The notes beneath the pieces are model-generated. The model saw nothing but the letters and a program-made list of their open reading frames with translations, was not told the DNA's origin and did not search any database. A DNA stretch of 13,254 bases. It comes from a bacterium UBP7_UBA7824. GTDB lineage: Bacteria > UBP7 > UBA6624. Below are positions 1-9,707 of the stretch, in pieces (position 1 is the stretch's first letter; every line of letters begins with the position of its first letter). The DNA lies in the NCBI GenBank assembly GCA_002501535.1, contig DLTY01000027.1, forward strand, positions 1-13,254, in the 5' to 3' direction. A program made the position numbers and the translations under genes.

Positions 1-574
1 CCTCTTCAACTGTAACTTCTGTTGTTTTTAAAATTGTTTCCATAAGATCTTCTTCAGTTATTTCTATTTCTTCTGAAGGTATTTCTTTTTGTTTTGTTTT
101 GCATGGACCAGGCTCTTTCCTTCCAGCACCCGGTATCATCAGCCTATCTCCTGGTTTTATTATTAGAGATGGGTTTTCGCCAAGATCACATGGATTGAAT
201 TTTTTCATATCTTGAACACTGACTCCAGCTTCTGAAGCAATTTTTCCAACGCTGTCACCAGATTTAACTACATATATTTGACCTTGTACTGGTTTTTGAT
301 TTGTTGTTTTTTTGCTTTCTTTATTCAGCTCTCTTGAACCATGACCTTTTGAATCTTCCTGTTCTTTTTCAGGATCATTATTTTCTTTTTCTTTTTCACT
401 TTCTGCATTTTGTTCTTCTGATATTTTTAGAATTAACGGTGGTGGTTCAGGCAAGGGGAATTTTATGAAGGCAAGAAAAGAAATCAATATTACATGCAAA
501 AAAAGAGAAATCCTAAGAGGTGTTCTTAATGATTCTGGAATTATATTTTTTTCTATTTCAGTTATTTTTTTCAA
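1..574 (-). CDS. TonB-like transmembrane protein with LysM domain (partial, C-terminus off the window)
   Basis: Likely the energy-transducing partner of the ExbB/ExbD motor encoded just upstream. I read 191 codons from a TTG at 574 to the window edge. Residues 21-39 form one transmembrane segment after a short cytoplasmic tail. It contains S23, H27 and L34 in the SxxxHxxxxxxL spacing known from the TonB helix that contacts ExbB/ExbD; the fourth position of that signature is Lys38 rather than Ser. A Pro-rich stretch (PLPEPPP, 40-46) and a highly charged linker (about 52-95) follow. Residues 100-148 form a LysM peptidoglycan-binding domain (YVVKSGDSVGKIA...LIIKPGDRLMIPG) with an extra Cys129; Cys158 lies just after it. 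The TTG start overlaps the exbD stop as TTGA, and no ATG lies upstream of the helix. Whether a TonB C-terminal domain follows cannot be seen. It could instead be a TolA-like or other envelope protein. Confidence 0.75.
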   Translation of the reverse strand, partial: MKKITEIEKNIIPESLRTPLRISLFLHVILISFLAFIKFPLPEPPPLILKISEEQNAESEKEKENNDPEKEQEDSKGHGSRELNKESKKTTNQKPVQGQIYVVKSGDSVGKIASEAGVSVQDMKKFNPCDLGENPSLIIKPGDRLMIPGAGRKEPGPCKTKQKEIPSEEIEITEEDLMETILKTTEVTVEE

Positions 575-1789: not shown

Positions 1790-3082
1790 ATGTCACGCAA
1801 ACTACGTAATTCAATTCTTTTAGCAGCTTTAGAGAAGATATTAAACTACAAAAGCATTCAAAGAAAAAAGAAATTTATTCTTAAATATCACCCTGGTGAA
1901 ATTGCTAGCGTTTTTCCGCTTCTTGAAAAAGAAGATAGACAAAATTTGTTTGATTTGGTCTTAAAAATACCTAGACCACAATTGATACTTGAAAAAGTGG
2001 ATGAGGATGTGTTAGCGCAGCAGATTTCGAGATTAAAAACTGATCATTCTATGAAAATTTTACGCAAGTTGCCAGTCGATATAGCTACTGCTGTTATCCG
2101 ATTTCTTCCAGACAGGATAAAAGAAAAGATAACATTAAAGCTTAGGACACAAAATCACTTAATAAGTGACCTTTTAAATTTTGATGAAGATACTGCAGCC
2201 GGAAGGATGGATATTCTGCCTGCATTTGTAAACATAAAAGACAATGTAAAAGACGCACTGAACAAGCTTGTCAGCTTTGATGATGATTTTTCAAATATTG
2301 TTTATGTTGTAGATGATGATAGAAAGCTCTTAGGTTTTGTGACCCTCAAAAAGCTTAGTGATTCAGATGAAGGGTTTCCTATTTCTGATGTTTTTATAGA
2401 TGAGGTTATCTCAATCTCAATATCGTCAGATAAAGAAGAAGCGATTAAGGTGTTTGAGCAGTATGGTCTTTTAATGGTTCCCGTGACTGACGAAGAGGGC
2501 GTGCTGTGCGGAGCCTTAAGCCCAGATGATATTGTTGATATAGTTCAAGAAGAAGCAACTGAAGATGTATTTTTGCTAGCAGGCCTTTCTGAGGAAGAGT
2601 TAACTGTCAACCAAACGACTTGGAAGATTGCTTTAAGAAGGATGTCATGGCTTCTTTTAACTTTGATTGGAAGCTTTTTAACCGGCAGGATCCTAGAAAC
2701 AAAAGGTCATTCAATTGAGAATTTTGTTTTGCTTCTTGCGTTTTTACCATTGATAATGGCTTTAGGCGGTGCAATTGGAAACCAATCTTCGGTAATAGTT
2801 GTTCGAGCCCTTGCCACAAACAGACTTTCAGCTGAAAAGCCTTGGAGGTTTGTTTTAAAACAATTAAAGGTTGGTCTTGCGATGGCTTTGTGTTGTGCTT
2901 TGGTTGTTTTTATTGTTTCTTATTTTTTTTCTGGCCAGTCTTTGCAATTTGACCAACTCAAAGTGGTTGGCTTAAGTCTTGTGGCCGCAATAATGACCGG
3001 CAGCATAGTGGGAACAGCAATACCACTATTGATGTCTTTGAAGAAAATTGATCCTGCTGTTGCCAGTGCACCATTGATTTAA
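1790..3082 (+). CDS. mgtE: Mg2+ transporter MgtE, ending early at an in-frame TAA
   Basis: Mg2+-gated inner-membrane magnesium channel. From ATG 1790 the reading frame gives 430 aa. The order is that of MgtE: a helical N domain (about 20-130, with repeats such as LRKLPVDIATAVIRFLP), two CBS domains (about 135-195 and 197-255), a linking helix, then the membrane domain. Helix 1 is about 285-303. Helix 2 carries the family signature PLIMALGGAIGNQSS (320-334). Two further helices lie at about 361-381 and 401-424. The frame stops at TAA 3080-3082, right after IDPAVASAPLI, where MgtE proteins normally continue into a fifth helix. That helix is present in the same frame downstream (see 3083-3142). 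As written, the product lacks the helix carrying a pore Mg2+-binding Asp (Asp432 in Thermus MgtE), so it should not be a normal channel. Confidence 0.9.
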   Translation: MSRKLRNSILLAALEKILNYKSIQRKKKFILKYHPGEIASVFPLLEKEDRQNLFDLVLKIPRPQLILEKVDEDVLAQQISRLKTDHSMKILRKLPVDIATAVIRFLPDRIKEKITLKLRTQNHLISDLLNFDEDTAAGRMDILPAFVNIKDNVKDALNKLVSFDDDFSNIVYVVDDDRKLLGFVTLKKLSDSDEGFPISDVFIDEVISISISSDKEEAIKVFEQYGLLMVPVTDEEGVLCGALSPDDIVDIVQEEATEDVFLLAGLSEEELTVNQTTWKIALRRMSWLLLTLIGSFLTGRILETKGHSIENFVLLLAFLPLIMALGGAIGNQSSVIVVRALATNRLSAEKPWRFVLKQLKVGLAMALCCALVVFIVSYFFSGQSLQFDQLKVVGLSLVAAIMTGSIVGTAIPLLMSLKKIDPAVASAPLI

Positions 3083-3142
3083 ACTATTTGTGATATAACC
3101 GGAGTAACTATTTACACATCGTTGATTATTGGATTATTATGA
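3083..3142 (+). pseudogene. mgtE: In-frame remainder of mgtE (fifth helix) beyond the TAA
   Basis: Directly after the TAA, in the same frame, 19 codons read TICDITGVTIYTSLIIGLL and then TGA at 3140-3142. This matches the final MgtE helix, which typically has a D-x-T-G-x-x-I-Y core, and its Asp corresponds to the conserved pore residue. Counting the TAA as one sense codon, the whole protein would be 450 aa, the usual MgtE length. The TGA also overlaps the next gene's ATG as ATGA (3139-3142), a junction that makes sense only if translation once ran through. I infer that the intact gene is 1790-3142 and that the TAA is a point mutation, a base-calling error, or a readthrough site. TCA or TTA would each need a single base change. 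Confidence 0.8.
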
Positions 3143-3426
3143 TTGAAAAAATTGCGAAAGGAATCTTTGATGGGTCTTGTGTTGAAGCAGCTTATCTAAT
3201 AGAGGAAAATGACTCTCTTTTGTCTGTAATTCTTTTTTCAGATCAATGGATTGAATTTAAGGACTTGAGCAATTTCACAAAACAATTCGAAAAAGGCATT
3301 TTTGAAAGTAAGCATGTTTTCTTAATTGATGCAACCAGGGTTTCAAATTCCTATATCTCTGAAGTTCTTGTGAGAGGCAGATGGATTTATGGCGAGAAAA
3401 ATTTGCCAGCTAATTTTTTGAAATAA
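3139..3426 (+). CDS. Unrecognised 95-aa protein following mgtE
   Basis: I do not recognise this family. The 95-aa product has no signal peptide, no transmembrane segment and no Cys cluster; only one Cys is present (Cys15). It looks like a small soluble alpha/beta protein: a strand-like LLSVILFSDQWIEF (about 27-40), an acidic/aromatic helix KQFEKGIFESK, a second hydrophobic strand HVFLIDATRVS (59-69), and a basic tail (VRGRWIYGEKN). Its ATG overlaps the distal TGA of the mgtE frame by 4 nt, so it was probably translated together with full-length MgtE. With the internal TAA, ribosomes would stop 57 nt before its start, which could lower its expression. Its 3' end overlaps the convergent outer-membrane-factor gene by 17 nt. 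It may be a partner or modulator of MgtE, but only the position suggests this. Confidence 0.7.
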   Translation: MIEKIAKGIFDGSCVEAAYLIEENDSLLSVILFSDQWIEFKDLSNFTKQFEKGIFESKHVFLIDATRVSNSYISEVLVRGRWIYGEKNLPANFLK

Positions 3427-8369: not shown

Positions 8370-8868
8370 AGAGGTAGTGTATTCCGGGACTTTTGACCCT
8401 GTAACAAGGGGTCATTTAAACATCTTAAAAAGAAGTCTTTCTTGTTTTGATGTTGTTCATGTGTTGATTGCAAAGAATCCTGCAAAAAAATGTTGGTTCT
8501 CATCCGGTGAAAGAAAACAGATGATGGTATCTTCCGCTTGTGAGGAACTTGTAGAAGATGATTTTGACAGGGTTAAAGTCCATGTTGTTGATGGTTTGAT
8601 TACTGACTGGATGAGAAAAAATAAAATTAATGTAATAGTCAGAGGTTTGAGAGCTGTTAGTGATTATGAATATGAGCTACAAATGAGCTTGATGAATAGC
8701 CAGCTGTTACATGGATGTGAAACTATATTTATGGTTGCAGATTCCAAATGGTCATTTGTTTCCTCTAGACTTATCAAAGAGGTTGCATTGTTGGGTGGAG
8801 ACTTTTCAGAACAGGTTCCTGCTTCCATTCTTGACAATATTAAAAAAAGGATTCAAGAAAAAGATTGA
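8362..8868 (+). CDS. coaD: Phosphopantetheine adenylyltransferase
   Basis: Fourth step of coenzyme A synthesis: joins ATP and 4'-phosphopantetheine to give dephospho-CoA and pyrophosphate in the cytoplasm. The 168-aa length is typical. Motifs: YSGTFDPVTRGHL (7-19) with the nucleotidyltransferase TxGH signature (15-18); VRGLRAVSDYEYELQM (93-108); and WSFVSSRLIKEVALLGGD (130-147) with the SS-x-x-x-K signature region. All match the bacterial CoaD consensus closely. The ATG at 8362 lies within the end of rsmD. The stop TGA (8866-8868) overlaps a TTG that opens the next frame as TTGA. Confidence 0.96.
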   Translation: MSKEVVYSGTFDPVTRGHLNILKRSLSCFDVVHVLIAKNPAKKCWFSSGERKQMMVSSACEELVEDDFDRVKVHVVDGLITDWMRKNKINVIVRGLRAVSDYEYELQMSLMNSQLLHGCETIFMVADSKWSFVSSRLIKEVALLGGDFSEQVPASILDNIKKRIQEKD

Positions 8869-9707
8869 TTTATTTTTTTTTATTTTTAGATACTTTAATT
8901 AAAGGTTATGGTGATGTCTCAATGGCAGCAAATGGTTCTTTTGTTGCGTTATGTAAAAATGATAGCCAGATTGAAATAATCGGAAACAACTTCAAGGCAC
9001 AATCCTGTTACGTTTCATCTGATGGAAAAGGTTTTTTTGATTTTTCTAAAGGTTTAAACGGTTCTTATGAAGATGAATATTTTTTTTCAGCTCCCCAAGG
9101 GACACTTTCAAATTCAAACATGGTAATGGGTAAGGGCGTCCATGTAAAAGCTTCTTTTTTTGATTTTCAATCAAATGGCCCAGCAGCTTTCGATCATTTT
9201 GGAAAAATTACCTTAAAGGGCCCTTTTGAACAAGCAAATTATTTAAGTTATGCATTAGATGCAGAAAAAATTATTATTGAAAATTCAAATGTTTTTTTAT
9301 ATGGTTCTCCAAGCTTAAAGGGTGAAAATTTTTCTTTTCAATCAAACGCTCCCGTGTATCATTGGAGCTATGAGTTTCATGATGTTATCTCCTCGTCAGA
9401 CTTGGAGTACTTTGATTATGTGTTTAAAGACAATATTCTTGATGTTCGAGGGGATAAATTTTTTATGTATATAGACAATCAGGAGAATTCCTTTTTGAGA
9501 ATTTCTGAATTTAATTTGTCTTTTAAGGATTTAATGATATCTTCCAAAAATGCTTCAATTAAGATTTTTGAAGATTTTTTTAACATTTCTGCAACAGAAG
9601 GAGAACTGCTGATAAAATCAGATGATTTTTCTAGCTATGCTAAGAATGTTTTTGTTTTTAGTGATTTGAGCTGGAAGGCTGATGGTGGCGTAAAGGTTGT
9701 TTTTTAG
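8865..9707 (+). CDS. Unrecognised beta-rich envelope-type protein
   Basis: Not recognised with confidence. The 280-aa frame begins at TTG 8865, overlapping the coaD stop as TTGA; an in-frame ATG at 8922 would give 261 aa. The TTG version starts with a short hydrophobic run (IYFFLFL), a poor signal peptide. The rest is rich in Phe, Ser, Asn and Asp with alternating short hydrophobic segments, as in repetitive beta proteins. Strands such as KITLKGPF, AEKIIIENSNVFLYG and ASIKIF recall the LptA/LptC jelly-roll fold of lipopolysaccharide transport. The motif F(D/S)FQSN(G/A)P occurs twice (about 97-104 and 151-158), hinting at an internal duplication. It sits 3 nt before a Wzm-like permease, which fits a role in envelope glycan or LPS handling, but this is inference. 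Confidence 0.6.
   Translation: MIYFFLFLDTLIKGYGDVSMAANGSFVALCKNDSQIEIIGNNFKAQSCYVSSDGKGFFDFSKGLNGSYEDEYFFSAPQGTLSNSNMVMGKGVHVKASFFDFQSNGPAAFDHFGKITLKGPFEQANYLSYALDAEKIIIENSNVFLYGSPSLKGENFSFQSNAPVYHWSYEFHDVISSSDLEYFDYVFKDNILDVRGDKFFMYIDNQENSFLRISEFNLSFKDLMISSKNASIKIFEDFFNISATEGELLIKSDDFSSYAKNVFVFSDLSWKADGGVKVVF

What the first reader, a model, noticed from the sequence alone, without database searches (positions are those of the whole stretch)
1790..3142. mgtE interrupted by one in-frame TAA; the last helix and the 4-nt overlap with the next gene are intact
The frame stops at TAA 3080-3082 but continues unshifted for 19 codons that encode the expected fifth MgtE helix (TICDITGVTIYTSLIIGLL), with the conserved pore Asp. 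It then ends in TGA overlapping the next ATG as ATGA. With the TAA as a sense codon the protein is 450 aa, the normal length. So selection has kept the tail, or the change is very recent. Options: a base-calling error, a recent nonsense mutation in this strain, or programmed readthrough. TAA is an ordinary stop in miaB, rsmD, rpmB and the Wzt-like gene here, so a general code change is excluded.
Basis: partly seen in the sequence, partly recalled or inferred. Interest (0 to 1): 0.75.

Follow-up and report, generated by a model that had tools for sequence, protein, structure and literature searches.

The report
Magnesium channel gene with stray stop
An ordinary bacterial magnesium-channel gene carries a single stop codon near its end in one metagenome-assembled genome, while an otherwise identical copy elsewhere lacks it, so it is most likely a sequence error or a private recent mutation rather than a new mechanism.

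Summary
An MgtE frame (1790-3082) stops at TAA 3080-3082 after 430 codons. It continues in frame for 19 codons that encode the last MgtE helix with the pore Asp, and ends in TGA overlapping the next ATG. The stop was seen in no other sequence examined. Database protein P0001 matches the window at 430 of 430 residues before the stop and 19 of 19 after it, but is 450 aa with Ser at the site. The same-genus genome G001 (90% identity) and the same-family genome G002 are also uninterrupted. Nothing found supports readthrough or a code change: no unusual RNA structure, no TAA-reading tRNA in a sampled third of the genome, release factors present. The genome is a 62%-complete assembly with gaps. Among 157 ORFs compared with G001, the one other stop inside a recognised gene is in ribF, nine codons from a contig end; two short ORFs are undecided. 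Verdict: a consensus error or a very recent nonsense allele. Sequence alone cannot separate them; error is slightly favoured because no CorA or Mg2+-type P-type ATPase was found here. Ordinary; low interest.

The parts
1790..3082 (+). mgtE open frame as it stands (430 aa: MgtE_N, CBS pair, membrane domain up to the loop before the last helix), ending in TAA
   Evidence: Translation; Pfam MgtE_N, CBS and MgtE, the last covering profile positions 1-110 of 125; NCBIfam TIGR00400 at 225.1 bits, just under its cut-off of 232.75, profile 8-427 of 450
3080..3082 (+). in-frame TAA; at this column the aligned proteins have T 75, S 36, A 7, G 1, Q 1 and a gap in 2, of 122
3083..3142 (+). in-frame tail of 19 codons plus TGA: the last transmembrane helix of MgtE with the pore Asp
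   Evidence: 19 of 19 residues identical to P0001 and to G001, 3 synonymous base differences from G001; aligned to solved MgtE 2yvx
3139..3426 (+). 95-aa ORF overlapping the original mgtE stop as ATGA; no Pfam family; similar ORF in G001 (ATGA overlap kept) and an ORF at the same place in G002 (TGATG overlap)
   Evidence: similarity judged by eye

Best explanation
This is an ordinary MgtE-type magnesium channel gene. The consensus sequence of this one metagenome-assembled genome carries a single stop codon 20 codons before the normal end. It is a private change: either an error in the assembled consensus (slightly more likely, about 55 in 100) or a very recent nonsense allele in the sampled population (about 37 in 100). 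If the stop is real, ribosomes would end there and make a 430-aa protein without the last transmembrane helix and its pore Asp, which should not conduct Mg2+. Shown: the stop, the intact tail, an intact protein identical at every other residue, and no stop at the site in the relatives examined. Inferred: error versus real allele, and loss of function of the short product.
For: P0001 is identical to the window at 430 of 430 residues before and 19 of 19 after the site, yet is 450 aa with Ser at the site; its cluster (90% identity) stands for 19 member sequences and 4 contigs, the longest 83,951 bp. G001 (same genus, 90%), G002 (same family), P0002 (76%) and P0005 (45%) are uninterrupted. Of 122 aligned proteins (the best 120 of 651 hits plus the translations from G001 and G002), 120 have a residue at the site and Asp four positions on; the 2 without are fragments P0003 and P0004. 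The tail differs from G001 by 3 synonymous changes in 60 bases, the pattern of a gene intact until very recently. The genome is 62.15% complete in 54 contigs, and 8 of the 20 sampled stretches other than the window hold runs of N. In the sampled comparison 157 of 541 G001 ORFs had a counterpart and 8 of 157 showed a stop in the alignment; mgtE and ribF (stop at contig positions 29-31, nine codons from the start of contig C7) are the clear interruptions of recognised genes. One nonsense codon in 50,768 codons would be expected from an error rate of about 1.25e-4 per base. CorA was not found in G000, G001 or G002, although the same search rang in 14 of 14 control genomes, 13 over the cut-off; the one P-type ATPase found in G000 has a heavy-metal-binding domain.
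Against: For error: the site lies inside a contig of 13,254 bases without N, not at an edge, and none of the 14 other window counterparts of G001 ORFs shows a stop. For a real allele: no CorA or Mg2+-type ATPase was found to cover for the loss; but the genome is only 62% complete, and G001 and G002 each have two CNNM-family matches of which G000 shows none. The sources behind P0001 are not shown in the output (the tool prints '-' for proteins tied to the window) and its DNA could not be read, so whether P0001 is independent of the window's own sample, and whether any of the 19 members carries the stop, is unknown.
Confidence: 0.92

Rival explanations
1. Consensus or assembly error alone: no cell carried the stop.
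For: Gapped, incomplete assembly; a second nonsense codon in ribF next to a contig end; no CorA found; an intact protein identical at every other residue.
Against: Mid-contig position, no N in the window; no stop in the 14 other window counterparts of G001 ORFs.
Confidence: 0.55
2. A real, private and recent nonsense allele that inactivates or lowers MgtE in this strain.
For: [quoted passage not shown] the tail is unspoiled, so the change would be very young.
Against: No CorA gene found in the held part of the genome; intact copy identical at all other residues.
Confidence: 0.37
3. Programmed or leaky readthrough of the TAA gives some full-length channel (a regulatory device).
For: The frame is intact after the stop. 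Belinky et al. suggest that in-frame stops can lower expression without making a pseudogene (PMC7918605, abstract). In E. coli readthrough was detected by mass spectrometry for 0.23% of genes ending in TAA, and it rises under stress (PMC11126739, passages).
Against: No aligned relative has a stop here. Folds near the stop are weaker than shuffles (z 0.81 and 1.25 for stretches after it, 1.62 for a span across it). TAA is the tightest stop in E. coli: mean reporter readthrough of 0.01 to 0.05% of wild type at four temperatures (PMC11126739, passages).
Confidence: 0.05
4. TAA is reassigned or suppressed genome-wide.
For: None found.
Against: TAA ends 6 of the 14 window frames checked, mgtE itself included, and 158 of 338 ORFs of G001 contig 3. 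G000 has one match over the prfA cut-off and a second below it that I take as prfB. No tRNA with an anticodon for TAA among 12 tRNAs in the 21 sampled stretches, about a third of the genome.
Confidence: 0.005
5. The 430-aa form is a functional short MgtE.
For: None beyond the open frame.
Against: It lacks the last helix and the Asp described as essential for transport (PMC3435302, passages); none of 122 aligned proteins ends at this site.
Confidence: 0.02

Closest known systems
MgtE Mg2+ channel (Pfam PF01769; NCBIfam TIGR00400; solved 2yvx, Thermus thermophilus)
   Same: N domain, CBS pair, membrane domain, conserved tail helix with the pore Asp encoded in frame
   Different: One stop codon before the last helix, seen in this sequence only
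Lone in-frame stop codons in bacterial genes (Belinky et al. 2021, PMC7918605)
   Same: A single nonsense codon in an otherwise conserved frame, with few other changes nearby
   Different: That study kept stops shared by two or more species to limit artefacts (Results part 1); this one is seen in a single assembly

Membership tests
MgtE magnesium channel | MgtE_N, CBS and MgtE membrane domains in order | tested here: met
   Pfam hits above cut-off for all three
MgtE magnesium channel | Complete membrane domain, with last helix and conserved Asp, in the product as terminated | tested here: not met
   Product ends before the last helix; TIGR00400 225.1 bits against a cut-off of 232.75; the Asp lies after the stop
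MgtE magnesium channel | Mg2+ transport | not testable with these tools
   Needs an assay
Programmed stop-codon readthrough | Stop conserved at the same place in relatives | tested here: not met
   120 of 122 aligned proteins have a residue at the site and 2 are fragments; the G001 and G002 frames have no stop there
Programmed stop-codon readthrough | Stimulating structure near the stop | tested here: not met
   Three stretches fold no better than shuffles
Stop-codon reassignment | TAA lost as terminator; matching tRNA or missing release factor | tested here: not met
   TAA is a common terminator; release-factor matches present; no such tRNA in the sampled third of the genome
Assembly or consensus error | Stop absent from the reads | not testable with these tools
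   No reads held; indirect support only

The most novel reading that the evidence does not exclude
The TAA is real in a strain of this lineage and is leaky, so that a trace of full-length channel is made: a stop codon used as a crude brake on the only dedicated Mg2+ channel gene found in the genome.
Probability: 0.04. Interest if true: 0.4.

Novelty: already known. Interest (0 to 1): 0.08.

Why it matters
It matters mainly as a caution. A lone in-frame stop in one metagenome-assembled genome, with an intact copy in the databases that is otherwise identical, should be treated as an error or private allele before readthrough is considered. If the stop were real it would be a natural loss of the only dedicated Mg2+ channel gene found in this incomplete genome, and would raise the question of how such a cell takes up magnesium.

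Tried and rejected
Code change: rejected. Readthrough signals: no structure. Mg2+ riboswitch or other known RNA in the window: no Rfam match at gathering score. Copies of the locus in viral contigs: none by protein or by a 21-base pattern; the tool notes that records very near the window may be left out. The genome-contig scan gave one locus, PBAU01000003.1, which is G001 contig 3 by its length of 367,145.

Split genes in G000: 5 of the 157 ORFs matched in several pieces; the six gaps between pieces are runs of N, that is scaffold gaps. Two further ORFs matched only over about half their length away from an edge or N run (L045 493-1062 and L043 8292-8852); no second piece was found and I did not pursue the cause. 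Of the 8 ORFs with stops in the alignment: 4 have them in the first 19 columns, where a start placed too early in G001 is the likely reason (one of these 4 overlaps a tRNA gene, and one, of 86 aa, lacks the third-position pattern of coding DNA); 2 are short ORFs of 90 and 142 aa with an open frame on the other strand, left undecided, so up to two more interrupted genes are possible; the last 2 are mgtE and ribF.

Papers: PMC7918605 (outline with abstract, and Results part 1 of 2), PMC5882242, PMC3435302 and PMC11126739 (passages). One search (MgtE, Asp432, TM5) held no paper; searches were seen as listings. The listings of 54 (mgtE with nonsense or premature stop) and 55 (MAG, premature stop, assembly errors) showed no title or abstract start on this point. 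Recalled labels, from no call: ribF, coaD, prfB, the housekeeping role of ribF, and the natural length of T. thermophilus MgtE.

Full report
What is there. The window is contig C14 of a 941,713-base genome assembly (62.15% complete, 54 contigs). I take it for a metagenome-assembled genome because of these figures and because its same-genus relative is labelled MAG. Frame +, 1790-3082, encodes a 430-aa MgtE with N domain, CBS pair and most of the membrane domain. After TAA 3080-3082 the frame goes on for 19 codons and ends in TGA 3140-3142, which overlaps ATG 3139 of a 95-aa ORF.

The tail is the genuine end of MgtE. It aligns with the last helix of solved MgtE 2yvx, including the Asp at chain position 455, which I take to be Asp432 after a 23-residue tag. 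D432 is described as essential for Mg2+ selectivity and transport (PMC3435302, passages), and D432A impairs Mg2+ binding at site Mg1 (PMC5882242, passages). As terminated, the protein falls just short of the NCBIfam MgtE cut-off (225.1 against 232.75 bits).

Intact copies exist. Database protein P0001 equals the window at 430 of 430 residues before and 19 of 19 after the site and is 450 aa, with Ser at the site; its 90% cluster stands for 19 member sequences and 4 contigs, up to 83,951 bases. Its sources are not shown, so its independence from the window's own sample cannot be judged. The same-genus genome G001 (PBAU01000003.1, MAG bacterium isolate SP4379) has a 450-aa protein, 386 of 430 residues identical before the site and 19 of 19 after it, and G002 of the same family is uninterrupted too. 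In an alignment of 122 proteins (the best 120 of 651 hits plus the G001 and G002 translations) the site holds T 75, S 36, A 7, G 1, Q 1 and a gap in 2; the 2 gaps are fragments P0003 and P0004 that end earlier. Between window and G001 the body has 130 synonymous and 44 nonsynonymous codon differences, and the tail 3 base differences, all synonymous. So the tail was under normal selection until very recently, and there is no sign of a conserved stop.

How often does this genome show such stops? I compared sampled stretches of G000 (309,953 bases) with 541 ORFs from three G001 contigs; 157 had a counterpart at 70% identity or more over at least 50 residues, 50,923 aligned residues in all. Eight of 157 showed a stop in the alignment. 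Four lie in the first 19 columns, where start prediction is the likely cause; two are short ORFs of doubtful reality, left undecided; one is mgtE; one is ribF (Flavokinase and FAD_syn domains), stopped nine codons from the start of contig C7. Eight of the 20 sampled stretches other than the window contain runs of N, and the pieces of 5 multi-part ORFs are separated by such runs. Two more ORFs match over only about half their length for a reason not pursued. One chance nonsense codon in 50,768 compared codons needs an error rate of about 1.25 per 10,000 bases, taking 5.2% of single changes in five window genes as stop-making. A lone stop is therefore within what an imperfect consensus, or ordinary polymorphism, would give.

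Would the loss be tolerated? CorA was not found in G000, G001 or G002, while the same search rang in 14 of 14 control genomes, 13 over the cut-off. The one P-type ATPase found in G000 has a heavy-metal domain. CNNM matches are in G001 and G002, two each, but none in G000, which is incomplete. Other Mg2+ transporter families were not searched. A cell without a working MgtE would thus be short of known Mg2+ channels, which leans towards error or a low-frequency allele, with the caveat of the missing 38%.

Readthrough and recoding. Release-factor matches are present, TAA is a common terminator, no tRNA with an anticodon for TAA was seen among 12 in the sampled third of the genome, and RNA folding near the stop is no stronger than in shuffles. 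In E. coli TAA is the least leaky stop, though not perfectly tight (PMC11126739, passages). Belinky et al. [quoted passage not shown] The present case fits that description and adds nothing new.

Conclusion. An ordinary mgtE with one private stop codon in a single assembly: error slightly favoured over a recent nonsense allele; readthrough unlikely.

Noticed in passing
3139-3426: 95-aa ORF without Pfam family directly after mgtE; G001 keeps a similar ORF and the ATGA overlap, and G002 has an ORF at the same place starting in a TGATG overlap, which suggests translational coupling to mgtE. Function unknown.
   Followed up: partly
L038 positions 2-352 (minus strand): ribF in the same genome also carries an in-frame stop, at contig positions 29-31, nine codons from the contig's start; G001 has an uninterrupted 319-aa ORF. 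Likely a contig-end error.
   Followed up: partly
whole genome G000: In a search of 60 genomes (own included) kinship drops from same genus (1 genome) and same family (1 genome) straight to same domain (57 genomes): the lineage has very few held relatives.
   Followed up: no
G000, G001, G002: No CorA-family match in any of the three genomes of this family. CNNM matches occur in G001 and G002, not in G000.
   Followed up: partly
8865-9707: 280-aa ORF without Pfam family between the coaD-like ORF and the Wzm/Wzt-like pair.
   Followed up: no
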